From the NCBI GenBank assembly GCA_030280995.1, contig JASXTE010000016.1:26807501-26871500 (forward strand): a stretch of 64,000 nucleotides of DNA, given 5' to 3'. A program made the translations under genes and the position numbers. The notes below the pieces were generated by a model. That model was not told the DNA's origin and ran no database searches. It saw only the letters and a list, made by a program, of their open reading frames with translations. This document shows, piece after piece, positions 20-64,000 of this stretch (within the stretch, counting starts at the first letter, position 1; every line of letters begins with the position of its first letter). This DNA comes from Hemileia vastatrix (Eukaryota > Basidiomycota > Pucciniomycetes > Pucciniales > Zaghouaniaceae).

Positions 20-190
20 CAACTCCCATTATCAGTTTATAATCCTGAAGGACTCAATCATTAAACCTTCCTCAATTTATAGTCTTGGGGGACTGTACCA
101 TTTCTCAGTTTAAATTCTTGATGGACTGACCAGTGTTTAGTTTATAGTCTTTACAGAATTTTTTCAATTTTCTGTTTAAATTCTTAATGG
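20..190. repeat. AGTC-box array of element A
   Basis: About five degenerate copies of a box of the form GTTTA-AAGTC-N6-GACT, near 28, 69, 105, 136 and 168, spaced about 30-40 bp. The same box forms arrays in elements B (54623-55200) and D (51385-51890). Here and in B it lies just upstream of the antisense gene start, so it could be promoter or leader sequence of that gene, or structured RNA of the retrotransposon. Confidence 0.6.
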
Positions 191-338
191 ACTGTTGCAT
201 AGCAAAGGTAGCGCCCCCTCCATGCACAATGCTTTGCAGCCAACCTGTTGAACTTCCACTCTTTCTTCACCATATACACATCATTGATAAATTTTTTTAT
301 TCATCTCTTTTCTCTCTACTATCGCTCCTTCACAGGTT

Positions 339-1879
339 ATGGCTGGATCACCAAATTTTGACCCATTGGACCTTCCCTACTTCACTTCTCCTAAGGACCA
401 TGCTTTCAAACAGTGCATACACATCTGCAGACCTTGCACATTCACTCTTCCTACTTCCCAGGCCAAATTCTATAACAGGGACTGTGATTCATGCAATTCC
501 AAAAAGAAAAGGTGTGACAGAGATCCCAACTACCAAATACCTCCGTCTTCACCTTCACACAAATATATATCCAGATAGCCTACCAGGTCACCAGAGCTTG
601 GACCTGCTTCTTCTTCTTTGTCTTCTGCTCCTTCTAGAAGATCACACAGTTCTATTCCCAAGACTTTGCCTAAAAGACCAGCTTTATCTTCCCAAGAATC
701 TGTTTTCCTCTCAGTAACTTCAGCAAAAAATGGTGCCAAATCAGCTCCTGGGCTGCTGGAATGCGTCCATGCAGCTCTCCCATTTTGGGGCGGCCCGCCC
801 GCCTTGTCAGAAAACAAAAATCAGGCTCAGAACATCACCATTCAGCCAGAAAACAACCAAAATCTTCCATCCAACACCAATATCTCAACACCAAAACCTC
901 CTAATGCTGAAAGAGCAATGCGTACCACCACAATTTCTTCTTCTGTCAACACCAGAAACTCCAACATCTCTATAAAGCATCCTAAAGGACCCACTACAAA
1001 AACCAGAGCAGCCAACACTGTTTCTAGATGCAAAACTCCTGTTAGTTCAGGAGAAAAAAACTTCACCTCTCCTCTGGCTGCCAATTATTCCTCTGAATCT
1101 TTATCCAGAAGATCACAATCAGCCACCAGACCACCATCTCCTGGTTCTTCCCTCAATCAACCTGGCACTCCTCCGCCAGCATCTACCAAACATGCACCAA
1201 GCAATAATATTAACAATAACAACAACAACAGCCCTGCTGCTGAAACCAGGCTACAGGAACCTCCTTCTTCTTCTTCATCTTCTCAAGACTATTTAGAGGA
1301 TGACCACAAAACTGCATACATCCATCTGGTGGAAACTCCTACAACACCTATTCAACACTCTTCAGCCGTCCAGATTCCGGCTGCATACAAATTTGAGGAT
1401 CTCCCAATCTGTAAGTACCAAAACAAAATAAAAAAATTCAATTTCTTTGACAGAGAATAATTATTGAACCACTTCTTCTGTTTTTAGTTGGAACCCCACC
1501 TCCTGCAACTGCATTTGGAACTGGCCAACCCCTAGAAACTACTTTGATGCTGTATTACACTGATATGAAACAACACCTTAGCGTGATGTGTTCCAACATG
1601 CATAAAGCCTTTGATCTCCATGGTCCGTTAAATTATTTTGAGAAGAATCTGAGAAAAAAACTCCTTGATGACCACTGGAAGATGTCTCAAATTATCAAGA
1701 ACACTTTCCAGCACTCCATTCCTGCTTCTTCTTCTTCTTCCCACAGTTTACCTTCTGACCCAGCTCCAGACCACTATAATTTGTATACTTTCTCCAGCCA
1801 CCTGCACTACAAAGAACACAGTTCTTCCTCTAATCCAAACAAGAAAAAAAACACCAACACCATCCAGACCCACCGCTAG
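339..1879 (+). pseudogene. antisense Zn2Cys6-like gene 1 of element A (broken)
   Basis: Opposite in direction to gag-pol. Exon 1 runs from the ATG at 339 to 1410, the intron is 1411-1487 (GTAAGT...TTTTTAG, 77 bp), and exon 2 is 1488-1879. The reading phase joins correctly across the intron. The N-terminus holds a cysteine cluster with the basic half CDSCNSKKKRCDRD. The first cysteine of the cluster is Phe here (HAFKQC against YACKQC in copy B). The middle is Ser/Pro/Asn-rich and probably disordered. The C-terminal part (exon 2) is a conserved alpha-helical-looking domain with LHGPLNYFEKNLRKKLLDDH. An in-frame TAG at 576-578 replaces a CCC or similar codon of copy B, so this copy is a pseudogene. 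The function is not known; a DNA- or RNA-binding role is an inference from the cysteine spacing. Confidence 0.7.
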
Positions 1880-15095: not shown

Positions 15096-15135
15096 TTTAC
15101 TGTCTTGGCTGTACATAATGTACACACACACACAC

Positions 15136-15149
15136 ATACGCACATACAC
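15136..15149 (+). repeat. 5' target-site duplication of the LINE
   Basis: ATACGCACATACAC, repeated exactly at 20818-20831 after the A-tail. It lies in a CA-rich stretch. Confidence 0.85.
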
Positions 15150-24863: not shown

Positions 24864-25267
24864 GGAAGTGAACTCTGTTCTTCGCCCGAAGAACAGAGTT
24901 CATCCTCCTATTTTCACACTCTGTTTAAAAAGAATAAAATGACTTACCTGGAGAGATGAGTTTAGAAAAAAGAAATATAAGTGAATGGAAGTGAACTCTG
25001 TTCTTCGCCCGAAGAACAGAGTTCATCCTCCTATTTTCACACTCTGTTTAAAAAGAATAAAATGACTTACCTGGAGAGATGAGTTGAGAAAAAAGAAATA
25101 TAAGTGAATGGAAGTGAACTCTGTTCTTCGCCCAAAGAACAGAGTTCATCCTCCTATTTTCACACTCTGTTTAAAAAGAATAAAATGACTTACCTGGAGA
25201 GATGAGTTGAGAAAAAAGAAATATAAGTGAATGGAAGTGAACTCTGTTCTTTGCCCGAAGAACAGAG
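24864..25267. repeat. 123-bp tandem repeat array with perfect hairpins
   Basis: Copies begin at 24864, 24987, 25110 and 25233 (three full units and the start of a fourth). Each unit starts with a 32-nt perfect hairpin: GAACTCTGTTCTTCG, loop CC, and its reverse complement. One copy has CCC AAAG instead of CCC GAAG and another TTTG for TTCG. The array replaces the catalytic part of the transposase gene. Confidence 0.9.
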
Positions 25268-28449: not shown

Positions 28450-29251
28450 TTATGAATGATCGCTATCAAAGCTAGCAGGATAACCCTTCCATTCCTCAGG
28501 CATGACAAAACTGTTGGGATTGGCGGGATAACCAGAGATAGACGACGAGCTTATTTTGTTCATGAGTTGACCAATTAACTCAATATTCTCATAGTGGGAG
28601 TCAAGCTCATGCTCAGAAAAATCAGGGGCGGGTTTATAGGAAGATGACATGGTGTTGTAGATTAGCCAAAGATGGGAGAAGATGCGCATGGAATGTACAA
28701 AAGGTAGCAGGGTTGGAACCCATCCTAAATAAATGGATTGGGTGAAACCTAAGAAAAATCAGGTCTTCTTTAGTACTAGATAGGCAAGTCAGTATATAGA
28801 GCTTACTAGCTAGCAGGTACACGGGCTGTGCGGAAGGAGAAGAAATTTGAGGCACAGTGTTGATGGCTGTGGCAGATGTTTGCATAGGAACGTCAATACC
28901 ATCAGGAGGAGGAGATTCTATTTTGGGATGAATAGAAATTTCTCTTTGAGAAAAGTTAGGAAGAGATGTGGTTTCAGCAGGAAGAGTTGTACTATAATTT
29001 TGAGAAGTATTACTGGAGCTAGCAATAACTGTAGGAGCACTAGAAGTATTACTAGGGGGGAATTGTACAAATGCATTAATAGAGGGTGGAAGGTTATGAG
29101 AAAATGTGCAAGTTTTATGGTATCTAAAGCAGTTATCACAGGCTTGTCTGAAATTGGTGTAACCTCTGGGTCTAGAAAATGTGAAATTGAAATTACAGCG
29201 CTGACAGAAGGCGCACAATTGATCTCTAGGTACAATACGGTATTGGGTCAT
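28450..29251 (-). CDS. antisense Zn2Cys6-like gene 1 of C1 (open)
   Basis: Opposite to gag-pol. Exon 1 is 29251-28807, the intron 28806-28749 (GTAAGC...TTTCTTAG, 58 bp) and exon 2 28748-28450. The phases join to give 247 residues without a stop. The N-terminal cluster is CAFCQRCNFNF...ACDNCFRYHKTC; the third cysteine position is Phe here but Cys in copy C2, where the full spacing is Cx2Cx6Cx14Cx2Cx6C. The middle is Ser/Thr/Pro-rich and the C-terminus acidic (FSEHELDSHYENIELIGQL). The gene is open although the neighbouring integrase is full of stops. The function is unknown; a DNA-binding regulator is one possibility. Confidence 0.7.
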
Positions 29252-29821: not shown

Positions 29822-30828
29822 TTACAGGTAAGGACAATCTAGGAAGGTATAATCCCAATCATCAAGGACTTCCTCGTAGATGACTTGTAGCTGATAAACT
29901 AGAGCTACACAATTATGGAATTCTTTGTTTCCCAATGCCAAAGTATCTTCTAGATATTCAAATACTGCGTTGAAGGCAGTATTGAAACGGTTGATTGTGC
30001 AGTAGTAGGGAGCGGCTACCACATGATTCAAGAACTCACCACATTTCAGGACGAGGGGTGCAGATTGGAGTATCAACAGTGTCTTCATTGTACACTGTTG
30101 CATCATTCTTTTTCAGAATCCTGTTGACGATGGGAGCAAACCAGTTGAAGAGTTTGCAAGGAGGTACCGGCGCAGGGAAGGCAGGCCATTGGGGCTCTGG
30201 CTCTTCTACTGGTGGGGATGCTTCAGGAGTCGGAAAGCCATCCCAATATGTTATTATGTCCAGACACAACTGAGGGTCTGGAGGTGGATCAGCATAAGGT
30301 GTTGCTGGCACATCCTGTAAAGAGAGGAAAGAAAAAGTTAAAGTCAGCAATTGGAAATTAAGAGAAAAAAAAGTTGCTTACAGTATTCCCAGTCTCTTCT
30401 GAGAAAAGAGAGTGAAACGGCAAACTTTATTCATCAGGCATGGGAACCCGATGAAAGACTTGTTGGCGTTTTGGTGTAGCCAATGCTTCAGGAGCAGGGC
30501 AGTGTCATTTGATGGTCAATTGACGCATCAAGTTTGAGGTGGAAGTGTTGGGGTCAACCGCGGTAGCAATGGGCATACTGTTGTAGCTTCATTTCTTTTT
30601 GAGTTGTTTGCAAAAGTTACACGACTAATATAAAAAAAAAAAAAAAAGAGAAGAAGAGAAAATTTTTATAGTATTGAAGAGTAAAAGGGAGAAGGGACTT
30701 ACATTGTAGTACCCACCACCACATAGGGCTTTGGCGAATTCACATGTATGAATTCCATTTTCTCTACATCTATCACATTGATGAATGCCAGTGAGCATGG
30801 TATCTACGTGGGTACAAGGTGTGGTCAT
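29822..30828 (-). pseudogene. antisense Zn2Cys6-like gene 2 of C1 (stops)
   Basis: Exon 1 is 30828-30703 (MTTPCTHVDTMLTG; CDRCRENGIHTC), the intron 30702-30625, exon 2 30624-30382 (SCNFCKQLKKK then TGA), the intron 30381-30315 (67 bp) and exon 3 from 30314. Phases agree. The cysteine spacing is Cx2Cx6Cx14Cx2C, and the TGA at 30591-30589 stands exactly where the sixth cysteine is expected. Exon 2 has two further stops in C1 (one is Arg in C2). Exon 3 reads DVPATPYADPPPDP to PRPEMW, then a stop; an overlapping frame continues to 29822 (EYLEDTLALGNKEFHNC) in both copies. The gene starts 190 bp inside the LTR. Confidence 0.6.
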
Positions 30829-31004
30829 ATCTAAAAAGAAAGAAAGAGAATAAGTAAGAAGAAAAATAAGAGATAATAGAAGAAAAGAAAAGATGAAGAG
30901 AAACTTACTAATTTTTTTTTTTGAGAATGGTGGAAGAGAGGAGAGTTTTGAGGAAGATAAGTGAGAAGCACACTATGGTTTTATAGCACCTGGGGACAGT
31001 CTTG

Positions 31005-31017
31005 AGTAGAGGGAGGC
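31005..31017 (+). promoter_or_regulatory. polypurine tract before the C LTR
   Basis: GTAGAGGGAGGC lies immediately before the LTR start TGTGGTACG, the expected plus-strand primer position. The same occurs at 45051-45062. Confidence 0.65.
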
Positions 31018-32080
31018 TGTGGTACGTGTCTCGCATAAGCACATGAATAACCTGTGAAGCGTAGTTACTGTTACAAAGGGGATAATAGGAAAAAAGGGTT
31101 TTTCATGTCATTAAGAGAAGCGCAGAGAAATATGGGTGTTGCACTTGCAGTATGGCTTTACATGTAAAAAAACAGCATAGCATGGACATAGAGCTCATTG
31201 TATAACTATGTGTTTAGCAAAAGACATGCAGCCGGTTATAACATGGGGCTAGTAGCACGGTATCAAGATAAGGAACTATGTGTTTTTTAGGGAGAGCTAA
31301 CAAAGCAGCAGCGCCAGCGCTAGTTACGAAAGTCAACTAAAGAAAGTGCAACAAGTCAGGGTGAAAGGAATGCACATACGCATGAAGCAAATATTGGAGG
31401 GTAGCCCAAGGATAATACTTACATGTAATACATGAGTAAGTGAGCTCTTTTACTACTAGTGCATCATTAAGTGGGGGCGGTACAGGATATAGTATACATA
31501 GTCTTCCTTAGAAAGCGTAGGGTAGGTATAGCTAGAGCATGGTAGTAGCTACCAGTTGCTAAAGGGCAATAAAGTTGTACATACATGCTACTAAAGAGAG
31601 GGGACTAGAACCTGAGCACTGAAACCTGTAGGAGAAAGCTGATAAGGCAAAAAAACCTATGGATAATATATAAAGGAAAGGATCTCTATGAAAAAAAGGG
31701 AAATAGAGGAAGCTAGAAATACAAAAATATAAAAAAAAAGTAATAATAATTATATATAGTAATTAAGTAACAATACTTAGGATTTTTTTAGGATTGTAGA
31801 GTAAGCTGAGCACTGAAAGGTTATTTTATTTCTGCAGTAAGAATAGTATTTGTGCATAGTGCTTCAAGAAGGAGTAGCTGAGAATATTAAGCGCCTGCCT
31901 GAGAATAGATAGTAACTGGGCTGTAGCGCCACTCTTATCTCTACGTTTCTAATTTCTTCTATATCATCACCTTACAGTTATCACTTTTTCTTTTCTTAGA
32001 GTGACAGGCACTTCTTTTAATTAAGAAGAACCAACCCATCTTTGCTGTGTCTATAGCTTAGTATTATAGAACTGTCTACA
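31018..32080 (+). repeat. LTR shared by C1 (3') and C2 (5')
   Basis: 1063 bp from TGTGGTACGTG to ACTGTCTACA. It is preceded by the C1 purine tract and followed by the C2 primer-binding-like site (TTGGTGTCCCAACAGTGGCG, 32082-32101). One LTR serving two internal regions indicates a tandem array formed by LTR recombination. Confidence 0.88.
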
Positions 32081-42616: not shown

Positions 42617-43301
42617 TCAGCTGATTTTGTTCATGAGTTGACCAATTAACTCAATATTCTCATAGCAGGAGTCAAGCTCATGCTCAGAAAAAGCAGGGGC
42701 CAGTTTATAGGAATATGAGATGGTGTCATAGATTAGCCAAAGATGGGAGAAGATGCGCATGGAATGTACAAAAGGTAGCGGGGTTGGAACACATCCTAAA
42801 TAAATGGATTGGGTGAAACCTAAGAAAATTCAGGTCTTCTTTAGTACTAGATAGGCAAGTCAGTATATAGAACTTACTAGCTAGCAGGTACACGGGCTGT
42901 GCGGAAGGAGAAGAAATTTGAGGCGCAGTGTTGATGGCTGTGGCGGATGTTTGCATAGGAACGTCAATACCATCAGGAGGAGGAGATTCTATTTTGTGAT
43001 GAATAAAAATTTCTCTTTGAGAAAAGGTAGGAAGAGTTGTACTAGAATTTTGAGAAGTATTACTGGAGCTAGCAATAACTGTAGGAGCGCTAGAAGTATT
43101 ACTAGGGGGGAATTGTACAAATGCATTAATAGAGGGTGGGAGGTTATGAGAAAAAGTGCAAGTTTTATGGTATCTAAAGCAGTTATCACAGGCTGGTCTG
43201 AAGTTGGAGTAAACTCTGGGTCTAGAAAATGTGCAATTGAAATTACAGCCTTGACAGAAGGCGCACAATTGATCTCTAGGTAAAATACGGTATTGGGTCA
43301 T
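42617..43301 (-). pseudogene. antisense Zn2Cys6-like gene 1 of C2
   Basis: Starts MTQYRILPRDQLCAF. The complete six-cysteine cluster has spacing Cx2Cx6Cx14Cx2Cx6C (CAFCQGCNFNC ... ACDNCFRYHKTC). A GTAAGT...TTTCTTAG intron lies at the same place as in C1 (near 42876-42818). The C-terminal exon meets a TGA at 42617-42619 (after MNKIS) that is absent from C1, so this copy loses about 30 residues. It could still encode a shorter protein. Confidence 0.65.
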
Positions 43302-43869: not shown

Positions 43870-44874
43870 TTGCAGGTAAGGACAATCTAGGAAGGTATAA
43901 TCCCAATTGTCAAGGACTTCCTTGTAGATGACTTGTAGCTGATTAACTTGAGCTATACAATTATGGAATTCTTTGTTTCCCAACGCCAAAGTATCTACTA
44001 GATATTCAAATACTGCGTTGAAGGTAGTATTGAAATGGTTGATTGTGTGGTAGTAGGGAGTGGCTACCACATGATTCAAGAGCTCACCACATTTCAGGAC
44101 GAGGGGTGCAGATTGGAGTATCAATAGTGTCTTCATTGTACACTGTTGTATCATTGTTTTTTAGAAGCCTGTTGACAGTGGGAGCGAACCAGTTGAAGAG
44201 TTTGAAAGGAGGTACTGGCGCAGGGAAGGCAGGCCATTGGGGCTCTGGCTCTTCTACTGGCGGGGATGCTTCAGGAGTCGGAAAGCCATCCCAATATGTT
44301 ATTATGTCCAGACACAACCGAGGGTCTGGAGGTGGATCAGCATAAGGTGTTACTGGCACGTCCTGTAAAGAGAGGAAAGAAAAAGTTAAAGTCAGCAATT
44401 AGAAATGAAGAGAAAGAAAGTTACTTACAGTATTCCTGGTCTCCTCTGAGAAAAGAGAGTGAAATGGAAAACTAGATTCATCAGGAATGGGAGCCTGATG
44501 AAAGACTCATTGGAGTTTTGGTGTAGCCAATTCTTCAGGAGCAGGGCAGGGTCTTTTGATGGTAAATTGATGCATCAAGTGTGAGGTGGAAGTGTAGGGG
44601 TCAACCGCGGTAGCAATGGGCATAGTGTTGTAGCTTCATTTCTTTTTGAGTTGTTTGCAAAAGTTACACAACTAATATATAAAAAAAAAAAGAGAAGAAG
44701 AGAAAATTTTTACAGTATTGAAGAGTAATAAGGAGAGAAGGGACTTACGTTGTAGTACCCACCACCACAGAGGGCTTTGGCAAATTCACATGTAGGAATT
44801 CCATTTTCTCTACATCTATCACATTGATGAATGCCAGTGAGCATGGTATCTACGTGGGTACAAGGTGTGGTCAT
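43870..44874 (-). pseudogene. antisense Zn2Cys6-like gene 2 of C2
   Basis: Same exon layout as C1 (start 44874). The cluster has CDRCRENGIPTC and SCNFCKQLKKK followed by TGA (44638-44636) at the sixth-cysteine position, as in C1. After that exon 2 is more open than in C1 (Arg instead of TGA at IKRPCPAPEE; one TGA after PKLQ). The proline-rich third exon ends PRPEMW, and the overlapping frame to 43870 (EYLVDTLALGNKEFHNC) is kept. Confidence 0.55.
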
Positions 44875-47456: not shown

Positions 47457-48842
47457 ATGGTTAGGATTCAGTCTTGGGATGGTTCAAGGTTTTTGGGGGA
47501 GGATGCAAAGGGGTTTTTAGCTAGGTTTGAGGTTGCTTCTGAGATTGATAGGGCCTCACTGTTGGAAATGGTTGGGCAAGTAATCTTTTTCATTGGTAAT
47601 AGGGAGGTGGAGAAGGAAGTTTATGGTATGGCAGGATATAAGAGTCAGGACTGGGGGAAGTTGAAGATTGAAATGGTTAAAAGGTGGCCTACTACTTTCG
47701 CAATGGTGGATCTTCATGGGATTTCTAGGAGATGGGAATTGGAAGATGGTGTAACTTCTCTTTCTCAGTATGTGGAATTTATGGAGGAATTTGGGGAGGC
47801 ATTGAATTATCTGGTATATAATGATATATTACCACATGATGAAAGGGCCAAGTATGTATTTTGGAGTGTCATGGGTAGGAATGTTAAGTTGGATGTTCTG
47901 GAGATTCTTTTCAAGTCTGAATTGATGAAAAATCTTCTAAATGGTGAAAATAGGATTCCTGGTATGGCTATTCTGAAGGAGGTTATATTGGGATATTTGG
48001 ATGGTATGAAGGATAGGGATGTGGAAGATTCTGGAAAGGAAATTTTGTTGGATGGAGAGGTGTAGAGGACTAAGGTGGAAAATTCAGTTTCTGGGGAGGT
48101 GTTGGAGCCATCAATTTTGGAAGATGGGGACTCTGATGATGTTTGTGAAACTGATTTTTCTTCTCCAAAGGATGAAATGGGATCTCAGGAATTTTCTTCA
48201 CTGGATGTTTTGGAAATGTCCACACTGGAGGATAAGTGTATTTTCTTAAGGTTGGATGAATTATGTGGGAAGGAGGATTTGTCTGGTCATGATGAAGGAT
48301 TTTGGGATATTGAGAGGGAATCTGTGGTGGATGAATGGTTGTTGAAGGATGATTATTTTTCTTTCTCAAATTCAGATAATGGCTTATTGGAGGAGGATGT
48401 ATCAGTTGAATTTTTGGATGGACAGTTGGATTCTGTCTTGGATCTTTTTCTCATAGAAGAAGATTATTTTCAGGTAGTTTCCACAAGATCAGAAGTTCTC
48501 TGCTTGGTGGAGGATTCTTATTTTGATGTTATGGATGTTATTCTGGAGGATTTTGCAGATTATAAGCAAGATTCCTGTAGGGAAAAGGAAAATTGTGATG
48601 TTTTGGATTTCACTGGTATGGGGGTTGATTTTAAAGATGTGGTGGAGGTTCCAGATGTTTCACAGGATGGAGAATTTATTGATTCTGGTGATGTGAACTA
48701 TGGTAGACTCTGTGTATGGAGGAGGATGAAAGATTTGTTTAGTCGTCTGATGTTGGGATATCAGAATTGGAAGAGGGGCTTAGGGGGTTCAGGCCCTAGG
48801 GGAAAAATAATTGGTTTCAACCTGGGTATTTCAAGAATCTGA
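47457..48842 (+). pseudogene. gag of element D with acidic C-terminal extension
   Basis: One frame of about 461 codons with a single TAG at 48063-48065. The N-terminal 200 residues match the A/B gag (WDGSRFLGEDAKGFLARFE; VIFFIGNREVEKE). The rest is strongly acidic (SYFDVMDVILEDFADY) with no zinc knuckle, protease or RT. The end at 48842 corresponds to the region just before the end of pol in B. It could serve as a capsid protein or be a passive remnant. Confidence 0.7.
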
Positions 48843-52781: not shown

Positions 52782-53874
52782 TGTAGACAATCCTATAGTA
52801 CTAGCTATAGGCCTTGACCAAGGGAGTTGGAGAAAAACCAGAGAGAAAATCCCCTGTCCCTTTATAAAAATAGAGTGAGATTTACTTGCTAAAGTAAGTT
52901 GGTTCCTGTTTTGCTAAAGCTCCTTTTAAACACACTTGACATCTTGATGAGCCAAGAAAGTAGTCCCCAGATAGCTTACCAGACCAAAGAACTGAAATGT
53001 AGAACAAAGTCCACACCAGAGACAGCAAAGATACTTGATGTAGGCTGCAAATCCACACCAGAGACAGCAATAATACTTGCTATAGCTTGCAAGACTATAA
53101 CAGAGAAAACAGTTGCCAAAGTTAAGTTAAATGAAGAACTTACTTGCAACAAACACAGCCAATTGTGGCCAGAAAACAGTGAAAACTGAGTGAGGAACAA
53201 TGATATCACCACTGGATGGTTGAATGATGATTAAGGTTGCCCCAAACTGTCTTATTCACTATGTACACACAGACCACTAACTAAGAGCCCATGCGCACCC
53301 ACCAATCTGGCCCCTGTACCCGCCAAATTGCATAAAAAATCCTCCTGGAGCACTCCCCAACCTCCTAAAACAGAGGCGGGCGGGCCGCCCAACGTCGGAG
53401 ATACTGCCTGAAGCGGCCCGGCCTCCCCAAAGCCAGAAAAACAATAAAAACCACTAATCTACTTAGAAAAATTAGCTACAACTACTAAAACCTTTAAAAC
53501 ACAGAATTTCACTATAACAACATTGAGACATGAAATATAGAGAAAAATTAGCTCTATCAAATGGTACTAAGCACTTAACCCTAAAACTTAAGGTTAGCCC
53601 CTAAAACACGAAAAACAAAATTAAACAGCAATCTTTTATAAACAAAAAATGAGGAAATGACCCCTTAAAACTCAGAATATGAAAAATGTCTTCAAAACAT
53701 AAAATATAGAGAAAAACCAGGGCTATCCAACGATAGCACCCACATACATGCAGAACCAATATCCACGGAATAAAACCAGAAAAATACCCAATTCTTTAAC
53801 AAATGTCAATTAAGACATGCACAAACCGCACCAAATCACACAACAGAGGCCCCTGCCAATGTTGGAAGACCACA
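52782..53874 (-). repeat. 3' LTR of element B
   Basis: 1093 bp, collinear with 10030-11123. On the minus strand it starts TGTGGTCTTCC right after the purine tract. If it promotes antisense transcription it would be the promoter of antisense gene 2. Confidence 0.9.
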
Positions 53875-53887
53875 TCCTCCCTCCAAT
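53875..53887 (-). promoter_or_regulatory. polypurine tract of element B
   Basis: On the minus strand AATTGGAGGGAGGA abuts the LTR start TGTGG. Confidence 0.75.
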
Positions 53888-53892
53888 TGAGA

Positions 53893-54563
53893 ATGTCAGC
53901 ATTCTTTCTTCATCCAACCACCATGTTTAACCTTCTTCCCAAATCTGCCTCTGAAATAGGCCCCTGCCAATACTGTATCGACAATAATTTAATCTGCACC
54001 ATGACACCACCTGTTCATCCATACAGAACGTCCTGCAATGTCTGCCAATCCAGAAAGAAGACCTGCCACAGACCTGGTCCACTTTCTTCCACAACAGATT
54101 CACCTCCACCTCAACCTGGTCCTTCTTCTGCCAGCACCAAAAGATCTAGGCCATCCATCCTGATACCCAGATTAATCAAAAAGCTCCACCCTTCCCAGAA
54201 GGGTGCCACAACCCATAAAACATCTAGTTCTTCCATCTCTGGTCCATCTGATGGTAAAGAACATTCATTTCTTCCTTCAACTTTAAAACTGATAACTTCT
54301 CAGTTCCTCCATCTTCTGATAGTGATGATAAAAATGTAGGATCCATTGCACCACCAACACCAACGCACTTGCCCACTATAAAGGCCAAGTTCCAACAACA
54401 CACATCTCAACAGAAACAACTTCTGCTTCACTACTTCCAATCCACTCTTGCTAGAGATCCACAGGACATTGAGAACAGAAGACACCTCATTCACCAGTTC
54501 AAGGCTAATTCTGAACACTTCATTTCATCTGTTGATTCCCTCTGTAATTCCACTATTACTTGA
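53893..54563 (+). pseudogene. antisense Zn2Cys6-like gene 2 of element B (one frameshift)
   Basis: Start at 53893 or 53923. The cluster CQYCIDNNLIC ... CNVCQSRKKTC has exact Cx2Cx6Cx12Cx2Cx6C spacing, that of Zn(II)2Cys6 clusters, with the basic residues in the second half. A Ser/Pro-rich middle follows. One frame shift near 54265 separates it from the C-terminal part (SSDSDDKNVGSIAPPTPTHL then a helical LLLHYFQSTLARDPQDIENR), which ends at 54563. It starts only about 20 bp inside the 3' LTR, so the LTR is the likely promoter. No family name is known to me. Confidence 0.65.
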
Positions 54564-54622
54564 GTTTGATTCAGAAAAGAAAAATTGACCACACCCTCTA
54601 TAGGATGTAACCACAAACAACC

Positions 54623-55200
54623 CTCAGTTTTAAGTCTTGGGGGACCATCCTCATTTTATAGTCTTGGGGGACTCAAAAACCCTCAGTTTAAAGTCTTGGG
54701 GGACTCAAAAACCTAAATCATAAACCCAGAGCCAGAGATCAACCACATTTAGACACAGAGAAAAAAATAACATTCTGGGGTAATTTTGAATAGAGCTGCC
54801 AGCCCATCAATTACCCCCAAACTTGCCTTTGCTAAATTCGGAGGCTCCCCCTGTGGATACCCTCCACCAATATTTCAAAACCAACTCCACAACAAAAACT
54901 TTTTTCTCAGTTTATAGTCTTGTGGGACTTACAACCCTCAGTTTAAAGTCTTGGGGGACTAACACAGTGTTCAGTTTAAAGTCTTGGGGGACTAACACAG
55001 TGTTCAGTTTAAAGTCTAGACAGACTATTCTTGATAAAATCTTGAAACCAGCCAGTTTAAAGTCTTGGAGGACTAACAGAAACCAGATTTCAGTTTAAAG
55101 TCTTGATGGACTGATCTTGATACCATAGCTCTTTCAGTTTAGAGTCTTGATGGACTGCCTTGATAATATAGCTTTTTCAGTTTAGAGTCTTGATGGACTG
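54623..55200. repeat. AGTC-box array of element B
   Basis: About eleven boxes GTTTAAAGTCTTGGGGGACT (variants) near 54625, 54650, 54682, 54906, 54936, 54969, 55002, 55050, 55088, 55134 and 55176, spaced about 25-48 bp within groups. They end about 150 bp before the ATG of antisense gene 1. Hairpin B3 (54777-54817) sits inside. Confidence 0.75.
54777..54817 (-). other. conserved hairpin B3 (compensatory change)
   Basis: GGGGTAATT (54777-54785) pairs with AATTACCCC (54809-54817). Relative to other copies both sides changed (C-G pair to T-A), so the stem is kept. Confidence 0.6.
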
Positions 55201-55351
55201 ACAGAATTTTGCATAAAAATGGACACAGCCAATTTCATGCAGCACACCTCTACAGCCAACCTGCTGAACTTCCACCTTCACTTCATCATCTACCCATCAC
55301 TGACAAAAATCTCCTCATATCCCTATTCATCATCTTTTCTCACCACAGATC

Positions 55352-56921
55352 ATGGCTGGATCTCCTGATGTTAACGCTTCTACTCTCCCTTGCTTCACTG
55401 CTCCCAAGGACTATGCCTGCAAACAGTGCATCCACATGTGCAGACCTTGCACATTCACTCTTCCAAATACTGAATCCAAATTCTACAACAGGGCTTGTGA
55501 CTCTTGCTATTCCAAAAAGAAAAGATGTGACAGAGATGCAAACTACCCTATTCCTCCGCCTTCTCCTTCTCACAAATACATCTCCAGATCCCCTACCAGA
55601 TCCCCAGAGCTTGGTCCTTCCTCTTCCTCTCTATCTTCTGCTCCTTCCAGAAGATCCAGAAGCTCAGCTTCCCGCACTCTTCCCAAAAGACCAGCCTTAG
55701 CCTCACAAGAAACTTCTTTTATCTCCGCCAAATTAGCTCCAAAAGCTTCAAAATAAACTCCCAGGCTTCTAGACCGCGTCCAGGCGGCCCGCCCGCCTCA
55801 CCAAACAGTGAAAATCAGGGCCAAAACCTCCAAAAATGGCCAGAAAACAGCCATATTCATCCAGACAACAACAAAAACTCAACCCAACTACCTCCTACTG
55901 CTCCCAGAGCAATGCAATCCACCCTTCCAAAGTCCAAAAGGACCAAAATTTACCAGATTTCTAAGAGAACTGCCAGAGAACCCCAATAAGAAACCAGAAC
56001 ACCACACACTGCTCCACAACAACAACTTCGTCCCCAACTAAGACAAAGAAACTACACCTCTCCTCTGTCAGCCAGCTACTCTTCTTACAGTTCCATCTTT
56101 TCAAATTCTCCATCCAGAAGAGAGCAGTCTGCTTCCAAATCCCCCTCTCCTTCTCCATCCTTTAACAACCCTGGTACTCCATCACCAGCACCTCCTCCAG
56201 CTGAATCCAACAGAAATAACAACCACAACAACAAAAATCTCACTGCTCCAACTAGGCCCCAGGAACATCAGCATCCCAGTTCACCTTCTCAGGATCCTTC
56301 AGAGGAAGACCATGAGAATCCATATCTTTCCCTATTTGATCAACCCACTATGACCATTACAAAATCATCAGAGATCCAAATCCCAGCTGCTTACAGATTT
56401 GATGAGCTTCCAATCTGTAAGTACCAAATTAATTATTCCATTTCTTCAACAAAAATAATTACTGATCCAATTCTTCTTGTCTAGTTGGCACCCCTCCTCC
56501 TGAATCTATTATTGCAGTTTGCCAAACTCTTGAAACTTCTTTGACCCTGGATTATGGAGACATGAAGAAACACCTAAGCACCATGTGTTCCAATATGCTA
56601 AAAGCCTTTGCCCTCCATGGACCTTTCAATGACTTTGAAAAATCCCTGAGAAAGCGCCTACTGGACGACCACTGGAAAATGTCTAGGATCATTAAAAACA
56701 CCTTCCAGCACTCCATTCCTGCCTCTTCTTCTTCCTCCTCTGAACTTCCCTCTAATCCCATTCCTATAATCTCTCCAGCAGGATGCACTTCAAAGAACAC
56801 AGTGCTTCCCACAATCCCAACAAAAAACAAAAAGGTCACCACAATCCAGACCAGCCTCCAGAAGCTTCATCATCCAGACAATGAGCTCCTGCAAACGATT
56901 AGAAACATAAAAACAATATAA
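55352..56921 (+). pseudogene. antisense Zn2Cys6-like gene 1 of element B
   Basis: Start MAGSPDVNASTLPCF. The cluster CKQCIHMCRPC ... ACDSCYSKKKRC has spacing Cx2Cx6Cx15Cx2Cx6C (with one extra Cys). Exon 1 ends at 56416, the intron is 56417-56484 (GTAAGT...GTCTAG, 68 bp), and exon 2 reaches 56921. Exon 2 carries the conserved helical domain (ALHGPFNDFEKSLRKRLLDD; HWKMSRIIKNTFQHSIP). Exon 1 has a stop at 55754-55756 and a frame change before 56300, so it is broken as it stands, though A and B keep the same exon layout and ends. Confidence 0.7.
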
Positions 56922-58136: not shown

Positions 58137-61100
58137 TCAATCTTCTTTATGCATAGTGCCTCTGGGATAAAACCTCTTCACTTGGTCTGCAGCCACCCTC
58201 TTTTTCAAGCCTGCACCATCCAACTCTTCCAAAACATAAGAACCTCCAGACGCCTGAGATCTGACTCTGTAAGGTCCATTCCATCTGTCAGCAAACATTT
58301 TCCCCCACTGACTCTCCAAACTTCTATTATACAACAAAACCAAACAACCAGGTTTCAAGAGATTCCTAAGTCTATGAGCCAACTTCTTGTCCCAGTACCT
58401 GACTGATTGATTCCTAATCTTCATCATTCTAGAGTATGCCTTCTCTTGACACTCCTCTCTACATTCCAACTGTTGCATCCTGGCACAGAGCAAATCTTCT
58501 GTTGAGTGCACGTTGTCCCAATCAATTCCAAGATAAGAGACAGCTTCCAAGTCCACTGGTAGAACGGCTTTCTGACCAAACATTAACTCATAAGGAGAAT
58601 AGCCAGTTGTCCTCTTCACAGTGACCCTATCAGCAAATAAAACCAAGGGTAAATAATGCCTCCACTTTTCGGCACTATCTCCGCACATCTTCACCAAAGC
58701 ATTCTTGATAACTTAATGGCCTCTTTCAACCATGCCTTCAGCTTCAGGATAATACGGTGTAGTCACTCTAACCCTAAAACCAACACTAGCCACAGCTTCA
58801 TTAAATTCAGCACCAAACTCTGGCCCACCAACAACAGTCACCAACTTCATCAACTCATACCTATAAGTCCACTCCTTCAAAAACTCTGCCACATTCTTGG
58901 CAGTCAAATTAACCAGAGGCACTGCCTCAACCCAACCAGAAAAATCATCCCTAGCAACAATCAAGTATTTATACCTTCCCTCTTTAATATGGACAGCATC
59001 CAGACTGACTCTTTCAAAGACAGTTGATTCACCAGTGGCAGGGCCCACCTCTTTAGGTTTCAAGTGACTTCTTCTTTGACATTCTTCACAAGATTGAACC
59101 CAACCATGCACAGCCAACTTCATACCCGGCCACCAAAATCTGTCTTCTACTCTTCTATAAGTCTCCCCAAAGCCTCTATGACCAAGGTCTTCATGCAAAG
59201 ACTTCAAAACCAATTCTTGACCCTTCTTCTGAGTCACCACCACTTGAGGATTAGGATGTCTCCTTCTCATCAACCGCCTTCCTGACACATAAAATCCAGG
59301 ACTCTTCTTCTTGATTGCCAACCAAGTATCATCATCACAACTATCTGGCCTCTCCAAGGTCAACAGATATTCCACCAAAATAAAATAAAACCCAGACTGA
59401 CCCCAGGTCTCATCTTCAAAATCCAACAAAACAACATCCAAGGGTACAACTCTGTCATCAAAATCACCAGTGTGAACATGAGCCAATTGAGCAGCCCAAC
59501 CAGGACACCAATCCTTAAATTTTGGCACGTCCTTCTCTTTCCATTGAACCTTGTGAGAATCCAGTTTACTAAAAAAAACACCCTTTTCCAATTTTGAGCT
59601 GTCCCAAACAACAACACGATCTTCATCAACAAAAACATCCTGATCACCAAAATCAAGATCAGATCCAGCCAGTTTAGCCTCTTGGGGGAGGTCAGAACAA
59701 TCATCCAGTTTAGCCTCATGGGGGAGGAGAGAAAAATCCTCAGAACCCTTTGTGCTGGCCTTAACCACTGGAACATCTTTGTCAAACTCTTCAGAATCAG
59801 AATTCTCATCTTTAGGTGGCCTCCTTGATAATCCATCAGGCATAGTAAAAGTTTTACCTGGTTTGTGTACCAGGTCAAAAGAAAAATGTTGAATAAATGC
59901 CACCCACCTAGTCATTGGAGCATTTGGAAGACTAGGTGTATTGATCATCTGAACCAAAGATTTTGCATCCACCTGCAGCTCAAAATGCTGCCCCCACAAA
60001 ACCGTCTGTAGCTTATTTAAAATTTTAGCTACGCCACACAATTCCAACTTAGGTTGAGAATACCTAGATTCCACCTCATTAAACACCACAGACTCATACC
60101 TTACTGGCCTGACCCTCCCAGTCTTATCCTCCTAAGACAAAACAGCACCAGCAGCAATATAACTTGAGTCCATTGCCAGATAAATTTTTCCAGCACCAAC
60201 CCCATAATCCAACTTATGAAGAACAATATCTTCACCAACAACCTTTTTCAACTTCTGAAAAGCCTCTTCACACTCTTCAGTCCATTCCAAATCTGCATCT
60301 TTTCTGGTCAACTTCCTTAAAGGTGAAGCCAACAAAGAAAAATCCTTAATAAAAATCCTGACACATACACATACACCCAAAAATCCCCTGACTTCAGTAG
60401 TATTTTTAGGCCTAGGCCATGACTGAATTGTATTAATCTTCTTCTTCGCCATAATCCTTCCCTCTTTACATACCACATGACCCAGAATTTCCAAAGCAGG
60501 AACACAACAACAGAATTTTGACCCTGAAATGGTCAAACCAGCCTCTTCAATCCTGAAAAACACTCTCTCTAGAGTTATTGCATATTCCCACACAAACCTC
60601 CTTTTGCCAGGGTTCTCCGCTAACACCTCATTACCATAATCAGTGGATGGTCCTTTAATTCCACCATCATCAATAAAAATAACAGCATGAGTAGGAACCT
60701 CATCCTTCAAAATTCAAGCCATCTGTGCTTGATAAACTTCCACAGAATTTGTTGCTCCTTGAGGCAACCTAGTGAGCTGAAATCTTCCCAAAGGAGTCTC
60801 AAAAGTTGTGAGAGGCCTTGAATCCGTATGTAGTTCCCTCTCATCATAACCACCCATAATATCACCCAAACCATAACACATCCTTCCAGCAAAAGCTTCA
60901 ACAAAATCCTCTGCACTTGGCCGCATACCAGTGTCCTTGATAGTGACTCTATTCAAGGCTCTAAGATCATGAATCACCCTCAACTTTCCATTCTGCTTCT
61001 TTACACAGAGCACCGGACTTGAGTAACTGGATGTTGATTGTTCATATAACCCAGTCCTGAATCTTTCCCTAACAATCTCCACAAAATCCTCTCTAATAGC

Positions 61101-62354
61101 GGCTGGAATCGGAATAGGTTTGATTTGCCAAGGTTCATGACAAACAACAGGAATCAAGTAAGGTTCCCCATAAGAGTGCTTCAATACACCCCTTTCCTCC
61201 TCAACAAATGCCACCACTTTTTCCCTTAGCACAATAACATGCAACAACAACTTCTTTTCTTCCTCAGAAAACCACCCATCAGGACCAAAATTAACAACTT
61301 TCAATCTTTCCACGGTCACCCTAGCCGTCTCTACAAATTCTGGAGGATTCTTTACCAAAGGAGTAAAGTACAGATCTCTTGACAAAGGAGGTCTCTTCAA
61401 AGGCCAATTCAAACCCACAGGCATAGGCTCATTGACAGGCCTAATCTTCTGCGCTACCTTCTTATACTTTGCCGCTCCACCTTCAACTTGAGGGATCTTC
61501 AGGAATTCTTCACCACCAGACCTGGAACAAAAACCAAGGGTTTCCCCATTGCTCACATGTGTGGCCAAGGTAATGTTTTTGAAAGGTGTAGAAGAAACCC
61601 TAGCGGTGCACAATTGGGAGGACTTACTTTTACACCCCAATCTCACCACTCCAAAAATTTTACGCAATTCCACATCTTTATCCTCACTTCCAACTTCCAA
61701 ATCTTCAAATATTGATTCATCTTCTGAATCACATCTTCTAAAATTGTGCAGTTTATCCTCATGCTGGAGGTCCAAAAATTGATCCTGATGATCTTCTCTC
61801 TTCAAAATTTTCTGCAGTTTGACCTCATGCTGGAGGCCCAAAAATAGATCTTGACGATATTCAAAAAAATATTTTGCATCTTCTTTATTCATTATCTTCA
61901 GATTTTTTTCTTGATTTTCATGAATTATCTTGAAATTTTTATCTTCTTTTCTTGAGTTTTCTTCTGACCTACAAAAATAACCAGGGGTTTCCCCAATGCT
62001 CACAGGTGTGGCCCAGGTAATGTTTTTGAAAGGTGTAGAAGAAACCCTAGCGGTGCACGATTGGGAGGACTTACTTTTAGACCCCAATCTCACTTCCCCA
62101 AAACTTTTCCGCATATCATTCTATAAAGATATATAACCAATCTTCTTCTTTAAACTTGAATTAAAAATAATTAAAAATCTTGAGAGAGAACAGAGACTTG
62201 ATAAAAAACTTGATGAATACTTGCAGAGAAGAGAAACATTAAAAAGAGAAAGTTGAAAATCCACTTGGTATATCTCCAAGGGAGCTGACCTACTACAACC
62301 TGGGATTTCCTCATCTCGGGGAGAGGTTGTAGCACTAGGGTGATCAGCCCTCAT
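58137..62354 (-). pseudogene. pol of element B, nearly intact (four stops)
   Basis: One continuous frame of about 1400 codons from the ATG at 62354, which overlaps the gag stop (TAATG). Stops: TAG after YISL (62118 region; Leu in A), TGA after YQAQMA (60711; Trp), TAG after AVLS (60129; Gln) and TAA after ERGH (58710; Gln). An N-terminal linker has a duplicated ~50-residue motif (61514-61667, 61958-62114). RT has LRVIHDLRALNRVT, LPQGATNS and FIDDGGIK. RNase H has YLAMDSSYIAAG, ELCGVAK and QVDAKS. Integrase has LHEDLGHRGFGETYRR, CEECQRR, LDAVHIKE and YYPEAEGM. The second catalytic Asp (VTVDGG in A and C) is Val here. It ends with WNGPYRVRSQ. Confidence 0.9.
61514..62114 (-). repeat. duplicated motif in the pol linker of B
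   Basis: Residues starting RKSFGEVRLGSKSKSSQ (62114-61958) recur as RKIFGVVRLGCKSKSSQ (61667-61514), each ending in a GETxGxFC motif. A has the same pair. Between them lie further Leu/Glu repeats (DLFLGLQHEVKLQ, DQFLDLQHEDKLH). Confidence 0.75.
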
Positions 62355-64000
62355 TACTCTAAAAAAGACAGACTCTCAATAGAGACTGAGCCGCACTCCA
62401 AAAAACCAGAGGCAGCACCCACTTCCTTCCTTCTCCTGCAGCAGTCCATGTACTGGCACATTGAAGATAAACCAGGCCTAGTCTCCCAACCATCCTCCCC
62501 AGGGGATGATAACCTCATGTGAAGCCTCCTTTCGTCTTCACCAGTCAACTCCAAACTGATTCCCAAATCAAATTGATAACCAATTCTTGCCTGAAAATCC
62601 ATCAAGAATGGCCCACCCAAAACTGCCTTTACATTACCTTTAGCGATGTAAAAATGAACCTTCCCTGAGGCTCCTCCAACAACTAACTTCACAAACTCTG
62701 AAGTTCCAACCAATTCAGTGACATGGCCACCAATCCCTCTCAAATTCCCACCAATACCAGTTTTGATGGGAAGGCCCATATGAGTTGCCTCAAACGAAGA
62801 AATCATGTTTATCTGAGAACCTGAATCCAACAATGCCCTTGCCTCCCTGCAATTCAGAGTGACATTGACATATCCCAGAGGAGCAGAAAAATGAGTTTCC
62901 AACCCCTCACCAAACTTTTCAGCAGAATCACAAATGTATTCTACCTCACCAGAAGAAACCCTTCTCCTGGTCAACAACTTTTTCTGCCTATCAGCCAACC
63001 CTGGACTGATAGCATACAATTCCCCATAAGATAGAAAAACCTGACCCTGATTCATCCTTTCCAGGACAGAGTCCATAACATTAACTTGACCAGACACTAC
63101 TGGACTCTCAAAGTGAGCCCTTTGCTTCATCACCTTGGTCCTAGAAGCTTCTTGAGGACCAGCACCGCCAACAGATTTACCATTGACAGGAACCAAACCA
63201 GATCCCTCACCAGAACCTCTGACTCCAACAGGCTTTGGAAATGAAGCCAAAGGGATATCCTCCTCAGAGTCAGAATCCACCTCCATTGGCATTGGCTCAC
63301 CATTCAGGTCCAATGCGCCAAAACTAGGGGGGCCCATATCAGCCATACCCTTCTGCATCTTGTACAGCTCCTCTTTGCTGTACCTCTTCCTAGCTGCACT
63401 CAGCTTAGGATCACCCTTTGAAGAATCTGGCTTTGGTTGGGCCTGAGAACTGCTCTTAGGCCTACCCACCTTTCCTGCTTCCACATCATAAGCTCCAGCC
63501 AAGCATTCACCACTTGACTTTCCACCACAAGAATACAACTCCAAACCACCAAAGGAAGTAGAAAAAGAGACTTTATTGACCTCCTCATCTACCTTAACAG
63601 AAGACTTCCCCTGATAAGGAATCTCCTCAAACCTTGGCCTCCTTTGATTGAGACCACCCCTTCTCCTGACCAAATCCACAGGAACCTGCCCCTCACTTGG
63701 CTTCACAAAAGAACCGTCAGGGAACTTAAAAACCCTGCCATCAAACTCCACTTTTCCTTTGGACACATCTCTGTTCAGTGCCCAACAATCATTGGACCTG
63801 TGCCCCCTCCTACTGCAATAAGAGCAAACCCAAGGATCACTCCTACCAGCCCTCCTTTCAAAATCTCTAGGCTGAGAAGGTGCCTTATTAACCTTCTTGG
63901 CCTCCTGGAAAAAAATGTGCAGCTGCTTTGTAAGATCAGCCAACTGCTCCACCATTGGGTCCCTCTCCTGTTTGGGAACCTGCACCAAATTCTTCTCCTC
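62354..64000 (-). CDS. gag-protease of element B (N-terminus off window)
   Basis: Open from the window edge to the TAA at 62354-62356; the frame is open upstream of the Met at 63988, so the true start is beyond 64000. The zinc knuckle CSYCSRRGHRSNDC is near 63820. Basic and acidic low-complexity regions precede the motif MDSVLERMNQGQVFLSYGE. The aspartic protease has ALLDSGSQINMI near 62835, and a flap-like GIGGNLRGIGGH. This gives the RNA-packaging protein and its protease. No stop occurs in the visible part. Confidence 0.88.
   Translation of the reverse strand, partial: EEKNLVQVPKQERDPMVEQLADLTKQLHIFFQEAKKVNKAPSQPRDFERRAGRSDPWVCSYCSRRGHRSNDCWALNRDVSKGKVEFDGRVFKFPDGSFVKPSEGQVPVDLVRRRGGLNQRRPRFEEIPYQGKSSVKVDEEVNKVSFSTSFGGLELYSCGGKSSGECLAGAYDVEAGKVGRPKSSSQAQPKPDSSKGDPKLSAARKRYSKEELYKMQKGMADMGPPSFGALDLNGEPMPMEVDSDSEEDIPLASFPKPVGVRGSGEGSGLVPVNGKSVGGAGPQEASRTKVMKQRAHFESPVVSGQVNVMDSVLERMNQGQVFLSYGELYAISPGLADRQKKLLTRRRVSSGEVEYICDSAEKFGEGLETHFSAPLGYVNVTLNCREARALLDSGSQINMISSFEATHMGLPIKTGIGGNLRGIGGHVTELVGTSEFVKLVVGGASGKVHFYIAKGNVKAVLGGPFLMDFQARIGYQFDLGISLELTGEDERRLHMRLSSPGEDGWETRPGLSSMCQYMDCCRRRKEVGAASGFLECGSVSIESLSFLE

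What the first reader, a model, noticed from the sequence alone, without database searches (positions are those of the whole stretch)
53893..56921. Gypsy elements carry paired antisense genes with Zn2Cys6-like clusters
Seen: in B (53893-54563, 55352-56921) and in C1/C2 (28450-29251 and 29822-30828; 42617-43301 and 43870-44874) two intron-containing genes lie between pol and the 3' LTR, opposite to gag-pol. A shows the inner one (339-1879). Each has a cysteine cluster with spacing Cx2Cx6Cx(12-15)Cx2Cx6C, the basic residues being in the second half. Known: Zn(II)2Cys6 clusters are fungal DNA-binding domains. Inference: the elements encode their own regulator or a host-directed factor driven by antisense LTR transcription. 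I know of no described family with this arrangement.
Basis: partly seen in the sequence, partly recalled or inferred. Interest (0 to 1): 0.9.

Follow-up and report, generated by a model that had tools for sequence, protein, structure and literature searches.

The report
Retrotransposons carrying paired antisense zinc-cluster genes
Abundant jumping elements in a very large fungal genome carry, on the strand opposite to their own replication genes, two real intron-containing genes for zinc-cluster proteins that look like gene regulators, apparently a built-in control or self-protection system.

Summary
[quoted passage not shown] In 20 hand-picked B-type copies and 7 C-type or divergent loci of the same 748-Mb genome the order recurs. 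L is open through its spliced intron in 14 of 21 B-type rows, P in 4 of 21. Divergent pairs show purifying selection, lowest in the predicted frame (w 0.14-0.50). The six-Cys cluster is Zn2Cys6-like: one of eight proteins passes Pfam's cut-off; 6 of 7 best stretches fit swapped halves. C-type L genes have their own conserved promoter block inside the element, so LTR-driven transcription is not general. Between L and P, A/B carry 8-11 copies of a 22-nt unit, less diverse than the sequence between units. Most likely: element-encoded DNA-binding regulators of their own element; binding and outcome are inferred, no expression data exist here. Antisense genes at this position are known (Grande, Retand, Boty; HTLV HBZ); a spliced zinc-cluster pair did not turn up in seven searches.

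The parts
52782..53874 (-). 3' LTR of element B (TGTGG...TCTACA in element sense); its partner lies at window-equivalent 64806-65896 in L059
   Evidence: BLAST and LTR ends, 5.5% divergence between the two LTRs, GTGG on both flanks
53875..53886 (-). purine-rich stretch next to the 3' LTR (polypurine tract of the sense RNA), just before the L gene's first ATG
   Evidence: read from sequence
53893..54253 (+). B L gene (LTR-proximal antisense gene), exon 1 with cluster CxxCx6Cx12CxxCx6C; a better conserved ATG lies at 53926
   Evidence: translation; w=0.38 against A; the first ATG is missing in A and in 5 of 21 rows, the second in 1 of 21
54254..54303 (+). B L gene intron (GTAAAG...CTCAG)
   Evidence: GT in 20 of 21 rows, AG in 21 of 21
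54304..54563 (+). B L gene exon 2
   Evidence: spliced frame open to the same stop in 14 of 21 rows
54625..55199 (+). array of 11 units of CAGTTTAAAGTCTTGGGGGACT between the L and P genes (single units also at 57604, 57868 and 59670)
   Evidence: 8-11 units in B, the 20 other copies and A; lower diversity in units than between them
55339..55348 (+). splice-acceptor-like CTCACCACAG three nt before the P gene ATG (predicted 5'-UTR intron end)
   Evidence: AG in 21 of 21 rows; CTTCACAG at the same place in A. Donor-like sites in the LTR at 52894 (GT in 18 of 21) and 53190 (19 of 21, also in A) are untested
55352..56416 (+). B P gene (pol-proximal antisense gene), exon 1, cluster CxxCx6Cx15CxxCx6C; this copy is interrupted
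   Evidence: w=0.44 against A over 347 codons, 0.164 over the first 80
56417..56484 (+). B P gene intron
   Evidence: GT and AG each in 20 of 21 rows; the other row is truncated here
56485..56921 (+). B P gene exon 2; its end differs between copies
   Evidence: w=0.24 against A in the frame that follows splicing
58137..64000 (-). pol and gag region of element B (runs past the window)
   Evidence: Pfam protease, RT, RNase H, integrase H2C2 and (below its cut-off) rve in separate ORFs
339..1410 (+). A P gene exon 1 (intron 1411-1487, exon 2 from 1488)
33..193 (+). part of A's array of the same 22-nt unit
28450..29251 (-). C1 P gene (two exons)
29822..30828 (-). C1 L gene; first intron separates the two halves of the cluster (GTAAG donors at 30702 and 30381)
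30980..31029 (-). conserved L-gene promoter block with TATA box of C1
   Evidence: aligned in C1, C2, L051-L057; pattern 599 times in the genome, control 0
42617..43301 (-). C2 P gene (ends early)
43870..44874 (-). C2 L gene (no stop at its low end)
31477..32080 (+). C-type LTR between C1 and C2 (partner 46626-47226)

Best explanation
These gypsy elements carry two old accessory genes (P and L), reversed between pol and the 3' LTR and expressed as their own spliced mRNAs. SHOWN by sequence: gene structure, splice sites, protein-level selection, P and L present in the A/B and in the C-type families, a conserved promoter block for L in the C-type families, and a constrained repeat array beside the genes in A/B. 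INFERRED: transcription itself; that the proteins fold into Zn2Cys6-like clusters, with the two halves probably in swapped order; that they enter the nucleus and bind noncoding DNA of their own element (the 22-nt array in A/B, the promoter block in C-type). There they set the balance of transcription: either limiting sense transcription and favouring antisense, as HBZ does, or keeping the element from being silenced, as VANC does. My confidence is about 0.97 that these are real antisense coding genes, about 0.75 that the cluster is Zn2Cys6-like, and about 0.55 that they are regulators of their own element.
For: Coding: A vs B, P exon 1 w=0.44 (0.32-0.57), its first 80 codons 0.164, P exon 2 0.24, L exon 1 0.38. 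C' copies L051 vs L053: P exon 1 0.27, L exons 0.27, 0.14, 0.22; C' vs C2: P exon 1 0.19 in both pairs; L057 vs C2 0.16, dS near 2 in these three; L exon 3 of L054 vs L051 0.50 (0.20-0.86). Other forward frames 0.67-3.9. Splice sites kept. Same-position genes match best between families: P(B)-P(C') E=4e-6, L(B)-L(C') 1e-5, against 2e-4 to 3e-3 for the four P-L pairings. Zn_clus 26.8 bits (cut-off 21) for a C'-type L gene, 20.5 for A-L. L upstream of P on the same strand in 7 of 7 C-type or divergent loci fetched. Promoter block: 599 genome matches, 0 control; 8 of 27 comparable P matches have it 1.56-2.0 kb upstream on the same strand, 0 flipped, 0 in 20 shifts. Array: units pi 0.022 vs 0.059 between, 2 of 585 shifts reach it; element D keeps 10 units though self-BLAST finds no L or P gene in it.
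Against: No transcript, zinc, DNA-binding or localisation data. Seven of eight proteins are below Pfam's cut-off (one without any match); in C2-P the C-terminal half matches the profile's second half, against the swap; the first half of the C'-type L cluster alone, and a second half from L053, matched nothing. The AlphaFold model is poor (pLDDT 50), and the best PDB profile hit, the zinc-cluster factor AlcR, is not significant (E=0.17). P is broken in 17 of 21 B-type rows. Within the B family own-frame w is 0.72 and 0.75 (L exon 1), 0.52 and 1.64 (L exon 2), 0.91 and 1.07 (late P exon 1), 0.45 and 0.65 (P exon 2) in two groups of rows. Close C-type pairs cannot tell (C1-C2 P 0.53, 0.23-1.8; L054-C2 P 0.63, 0.31-1.5). 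The reverse frame sharing third positions is also low, though it has stops. Nothing links either protein to the array or the promoter block; C1 and C2 have no such array.
Confidence: 0.55

Rival explanations
1. Anti-silencing system: one or both proteins bind the element's own repeats and keep it free of host silencing, as VANC does in Arabidopsis VANDAL elements. This is a sub-case of the best explanation with a specific outcome.
For: Element-encoded putative DNA-binding proteins plus family-specific tandem units in noncoding DNA; units constrained. VANC targets often form tandem repeats that vary between related TEs (PMC5735166, abstract and section list). The family is very abundant: 11,977 first-look candidates, 150 scored.
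Against: Host silencing pathway not known here; no methylation or small-RNA data; resemblance of the proteins to VANC was not tested.
Confidence: 0.25
2. The genes act in the host: regulators of host transcription that favour element activity or spread, with no role at the element itself.
For: Zinc clusters are a common fungal transcription-factor domain; one canonical host example was read in this genome (L060).
Against: Array units are constrained inside the element. P and L have stayed in the elements across families. Whether host-located relatives exist was not tested: per search only about 150 candidates were scored and few were read in context.
Confidence: 0.12
3. The clusters serve RNA or protein binding (for example nuclear import of the integration complex or RNA packaging), not DNA binding.
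For: Most clusters score below the Zn_clus cut-off; the stretch between the halves (12-15) is long; plant antisense accessory proteins have been suggested to act in retrotransposition (PMC7264820).
Against: C'-type L gene passes Zn_clus, with a basic half CxxCKKRKKKC; separate genes with their own promoter (C-type) would suit a regulator better than a structural protein (inference).
Confidence: 0.15
4. Antisense noncoding RNA or chance ORFs: the frames mean nothing.
For: Some antisense transcripts of retroelements have no protein-coding capacity (PMC7264820).
Against: w lowest in the predicted frame and well below 1 in independent divergent pairs; frames open only after splicing; six-Cys pattern 3 vs 0 in 30 simulations.
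Confidence: 0.02

Closest known systems
[quoted passage not shown]
   Same: Position and orientation; own promoter upstream of gene23 in Grande; predicted DNA binding and, in about half, tandem arrays in Retand (PMC7264820 parts 1-2 of 3, PMC11963269 passages)
   Different: Here a zinc-cluster type, as two related genes, with introns in the coding part; Pfam gave no TRP28 or SMC domain. Boty's antisense ORF was not compared and its paper not read.
HBZ / APH of HTLVs
   Same: Spliced antisense gene encoding a nuclear regulator that represses sense transcription (PMC3185765 passages)
   Different: bZIP or other proteins, transcription starts in the 3' LTR; host and virus unrelated. An analogy of working, not kinship.
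VANC / VANDAL21 anti-silencing (Arabidopsis)
   Same: TE-encoded protein acting on motifs that often form tandem repeats in TE DNA (PMC5735166 abstract and section list)
   Different: Not an LTR element (recalled: a DNA transposon); the proteins were not compared; binding not shown here.
Fungal Zn2Cys6 (Zn_clus, PF00172) transcription factors
   Same: Two CxxCx6C halves, one basic; one C'-type L gene passes the Pfam cut-off
   Different: Order of halves reversed in 6 of 7 stretches and linker longer; seven of eight below cut-off; the host factor read here has the canonical order (L060).
Bdelloid rotifer LTR elements with captured ORF3
   Same: Accessory ORFs of identifiable origin in LTR elements (PMC5408684 passages)
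   Different: Enzyme-type ORFs (GDSL, DEDDy); the passages I saw do not describe antisense spliced regulators.

Membership tests
Ty3/gypsy LTR retrotransposon | PR-RT-RH-INT order in pol between LTRs | tested here: met
   For B: ORFs in order Asp protease, RVT_1, RNase H, integrase H2C2 (rve below its cut-off), and an LTR pair. A aligns with B over 8 kb and has an LTR pair. For C only protease and RNase H were hit in the three ORFs scanned; C matches B's pol at 66-67% in DNA.
Zn2Cys6 (PF00172) | score above Pfam's curated cut-off of 21 bits | tested here: inconclusive
   1 of 8 proteins over the cut-off: 26.8 bits (C'-type L, exons joined); the others: A-L 20.5, B-L 15.6, L053-P 14.8, B-P 13.8, C2-P 13.3, L051-P 12.4, A-P no match
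Zn2Cys6 (PF00172) | basic half first, then second half (canonical order) | tested here: not met
   6 of 7 best stretches fit swapped halves, 1 (C2-P) does not; most are weak
Zn2Cys6 (PF00172) | two zinc ions held by six cysteines; DNA binding | not testable with these tools
   AlphaFold2 without zinc gave pLDDT 50, a short helix at each CxxC
[quoted passage not shown]
   present in all 21 B-type rows and 7 C-type or divergent loci examined, hand-picked from 150 and 151 matches to the P protein; frames often broken, P more than L
Retand lineage | TRP28 domain in the antisense ORF | tested here: not met
   no PF04195 among the matches in the Pfam scans
HBZ-like antisense gene | transcription starts in the 3' LTR | tested here: inconclusive
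   A/B: L gene begins within about 50 nt of the LTR; C-type: own internal promoter block; no transcripts seen
HBZ-like antisense gene | represses sense transcription | not testable with these tools
   no expression data
VANC-like anti-silencing | element-encoded protein binds tandem motifs in the element | not testable with these tools
   motifs present and constrained; binding unknown

The most novel reading that the evidence does not exclude
A self-contained control module in fungal gypsy elements: two antisense, spliced genes for half-swapped Zn2Cys6 proteins that recognise the element's own constrained repeat array or promoter block and thereby switch between sense and antisense expression or shield the element from silencing. 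It would be a fungal counterpart, evolved independently, of HBZ and VANC, and could help explain how these families spread through a 748-Mb genome.
Probability: 0.35. Interest if true: 0.85.

Novelty: new variant of a known kind. Interest (0 to 1): 0.72.

Why it matters
Antisense accessory genes of LTR elements have resisted explanation; [quoted passage not shown] Here they carry a recognisable regulator-like domain, are under measurable selection, and sit beside constrained candidate binding sites, so their role becomes testable. If they control or protect the element, they bear on how some fungal genomes swelled to hundreds of megabases. Gene annotation may also mistake such genes for host transcription factors.

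Tried and rejected
Chance ORFs and noncoding antisense RNA: rejected by selection and splicing. Sense-strand gene in the same place: rejected; the reverse frame with low w shares third positions and carries stops (11 and 14 in P exon 1). LTR-driven transcription for all families: rejected for C-type. Seven-cysteine cluster: a seventh Cys is present in several copies but its place is not conserved. Relatives outside this genome: none in the protein collection (46 and 98 candidates, none at E<=1), none in viral contigs (37 pattern matches, none confirmed). Fungal collections are not on hand, so absence elsewhere is not shown. Host identity: a 5.8S pattern gave no match; an Rfam 5.8S search did not complete. 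Structure: model too poor for a fold search, so none was run. Splice donor for the predicted P-gene 5'-UTR intron in A/B: only untested donor-like sites in the LTR. L promoter in the A/B LTR: no TATA shared by A and B. Target-site duplication: 4 bp for B, none for A.

Limits: the 20 B-type copies were picked by hand from 150 listed matches, plus-strand only, with an eye to open frames; the 7 C-type or divergent loci likewise from 151; so intact fractions are not genome estimates. Retrieval by P similarity biases P and, for C-type, P exon 1; A-B and the L-gene comparisons are free of it. Rows dropped: L035, L048, also L039 (diversity, 111, 113). Array units were defined by likeness to B; B itself was left out only. 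One search's alignment was wrong (minus-strand loci not turned) and replaced. In some searches the L-gene exon junction was set one base late on both sides: same frame, one residue differs. In one search A's P exon 1 was taken two bases too long. One search used 27 of the 151 P matches, those on contigs C2, C19 and C26 (to 64.25 Mb) for which promoter places were printed.
Full report
WHAT IS THERE. The window (64 kb of a 748-Mb genome in 791 contigs) is a nest of LTR elements. Self-comparison places A and B (80% alike over 8 kb) and C1 and C2 (94% alike over 4.9 kb). B's separate ORFs read protease, RT, RNase H and integrase. B lies between LTRs at 52782-53874 and 64806-65896 (5.5% apart), A between L058:2380-3469 and 10030-11123 (11.7% apart, no target-site duplication seen). 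Between pol and the 3' LTR, on the opposite strand, are two genes. I call the one next to pol P and the one next to the LTR L.

ARE THEY GENES. I compared 21 rows: B and 20 copies picked by hand from the 150 listed matches to the first part of P. The L intron keeps GT in 20 and AG in 21; the P intron keeps both in 20, the remaining row being truncated there. The spliced L frame reaches the same stop in 14 of 21; P is open through both exons in 4 of 21 and broken in 17, about half of the rows sharing one frameshift. Over 18 of these rows nucleotide diversity is 0.03-0.04 in the exons of both genes, 0.04 between them, 0.10 in the LTR and 0.10 behind the P gene. Codon comparison of A with B gives w 0.44 for P exon 1, 0.164 for its first 80 codons, 0.24 for P exon 2 and 0.38 for L exon 1, while the other forward frames lie between 0.67 and 3.9. 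In the C-type families two C' copies give 0.27 (P exon 1) and 0.27, 0.14, 0.22 (three L exons); C' against C2 gives 0.19 for P in both pairs and L057 against C2 0.16, with synonymous sites near saturation; L exon 3 of L054 against L051 gives 0.50. In each of the divergent pairs for which I ran all six frames the predicted frame is the lowest, but the reverse frame that shares its third positions is also low (0.22-0.58); it carries stops. Against this, C1-C2 and L054-C2 are too close to tell (P: 0.53, interval 0.23-1.8; 0.63, 0.31-1.5), and within the B family own-frame w is 0.72 and 0.75 for L exon 1, 0.52 and 1.64 for L exon 2, 0.91 and 1.07 for late P exon 1, 0.45 and 0.65 for P exon 2 in two groups of 9 and 10 rows, as expected if many copies decay after insertion.

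ARE THE PAIRS RELATED. With exact letters, P of B matches P of C' at E=4e-6 and L of B matches L of C' at E=1e-5 (over 20 residues only), while the four P-L pairings give 2e-4, 5e-4, 8e-4 and 3e-3. Same-position genes are thus closest, which suggests, but does not prove, that a duplicated pair predates the split of these families. In 7 of 7 C-type or divergent loci fetched L lies upstream of P on the same strand; ATG-to-ATG distances are 1516-1556 nt in five, 1907 in L056 and 2661 in L057; B 1459, C1 1577, C2 1573 from their ATGs. The first L intron has the donor GTAAGT in 7 of 7; an acceptor AG is visible in 6 of 7, not in L056. Genome searches gave 150 scored of 11,977 candidates for B's P, listed at 93-100% identity, and 151 matches from 4,041 candidates for C2's P, listed down to 41%.

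THE CLUSTER. Conserved cysteines follow CxxCx6-7Cx12-15CxxCx6C. The strict form occurs 3 times in the window and in none of 30 simulated windows. Against Pfam, one of eight proteins passes the Zn_clus cut-off (26.8 bits, cut-off 21); A's L gene just misses (20.5); five score 12.4-15.6 and A's P gives nothing. Six of seven best stretches place the first half on the profile's second half or the second half on its first; C2-P does the opposite. Tested alone, the second half of the C'-type L cluster scores 21.0 bits on profile 1-18, its first half nothing. A host factor in the same genome has the canonical order (L060). So the cluster is Zn2Cys6-like, probably with halves swapped, but formal membership is open. 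A profile of the P clusters finds AlcR, a zinc-cluster factor, as its best PDB hit, not significantly (E=0.17). AlphaFold2 gives pLDDT 50 with a short helix at each CxxC, too poor to lean on.

HOW THEY MAY BE TRANSCRIBED. In C-type families the region before the L gene has a block, TCCCTCTACT....ACTGTCCCCAGG.GC, alike in nine sequences (C1, C2, L051-L057), followed by a TATA box in six of them (regular expression plus L057 read; L051 and L052 read CATAAAT, L056 none). The pattern, written from these nine, occurs 599 times in the genome against 0 for the reversed control. Of 27 P matches that could be compared, 8 have it 1.56-2.0 kb upstream on the same strand, 0 when flipped, 0 in 20 random shifts; one of the 8 (L056) had been used to write the pattern. 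C-type P genes have TATA-like boxes at -46 or about -60 in the 7 looked at. In A/B the L gene starts within about 50 nt of the LTR, so its start must lie in or beyond the LTR; P has a splice-acceptor-like site 3 nt before its ATG in 21 of 21 rows, with only untested donor-like sites upstream.

A CONSTRAINED ARRAY. Between L and P each of the 21 rows, and A, has 8-11 copies of a 22-nt unit, CAGTTTAAAGTCTTGGGGGACT; the stretch 11200-46500, which holds C1 and C2, has none on either strand. Single units also lie behind the P gene of B and A and one in B's pol. Leaving out B, units have diversity 0.022 and the sequence between them 0.059; of 585 circular shifts of the mask only 2, both within 3 nt, do as well. 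Element D (about 47.2-52.8 kb), which shares pieces with A/B in self-BLAST but none of L or P, keeps 10 units, two of them in the part that matches the stretch behind P.

MOST LIKELY MECHANISM. Element-encoded DNA-binding proteins act on noncoding DNA of their own element. Gene structure, selection, promoter block and array are shown by sequence; transcription, zinc, DNA binding, target and outcome are inferred. HBZ (antisense, spliced, represses sense transcription; PMC3185765, passages) and VANC (a TE protein bound to motifs, often tandem, that undoes methylation; PMC5735166, abstract and section list) show that such steps exist elsewhere; neither is claimed as a relative.

NOVELTY. Antisense genes at this place are known in plants and in fungal Boty (PMC7264820, parts 1 and 2 of 3; Boty's paper not read), and Retand even combines antisense putative DNA-binding proteins with tandem arrays (PMC11963269, passages). 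A spliced pair of zinc-cluster genes did not turn up in seven answered searches (listings and abstract starts seen), which covered open-licence papers only. A survey of TEs in rust fungi has no hit for 'zinc' or 'antisense' in its main text (PMC12210899, word search only). I file it as a new variant of a known kind.

HOST. Eighteen contigs with a known length of 25-71 Mb appear among the loci (C19 and C95 were also hit but their lengths not seen), which recalls the 18 chromosomes of rust fungi; this is an inference from recall and was not confirmed. For that reason bench tests are referred.

Noticed in passing
window 47.2-52.8 kb: Element D: two ORFs (47457-48065 and 48075-48842; the first gave no Pfam match) after a PBS-like sequence; shares noncoding pieces with A/B but no pol, L or P by self-BLAST; keeps 10 array units in the same sense relative to its ORFs.
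   Followed up: partly
window 15081-20665: A LINE-type element with two long open frames (586 and 1275 aa; endonuclease, RT, RNase H in the second).
   Followed up: no
B-family copies, late exon 1 of the P gene: About half of 21 copies share one frameshift, so that a shortened P protein may be spreading within the family.
   Followed up: partly
window 24862-25267: Three overlapping-register copies of a tandem repeat of 123-nt period, 98-99% alike.
   Followed up: no
L058 1-1506: A further B-type element end, in the opposite orientation, directly left of element A.
   Followed up: no
window 31477-32080 and 46626-47226: C1 and C2 share one LTR, and the LTR at 46626-47226 runs straight into a PBS-like sequence of element D, as if LTRs had recombined.
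   Followed up: no
other contigs of the assembly: 12 of 13 canonical Zn_clus matches lie at coordinates below 111 kb on contigs other than the chromosome-sized ones; they may be contaminants (contig lengths not seen).
   Followed up: no
window 54625-55199 and 30980-31029: The array unit (TTGGGGGAC) and the C-type promoter block (CTGGGGACAG on the other strand) share a G-rich core, possibly one binding site.
   Followed up: no
window 29822-29830 and 43870-43880: The end of the C-type L gene is unclear: GTAAGT with an in-frame TAA in C1, GCAAGT without a stop in C2; it could be a further splice donor.
   Followed up: no
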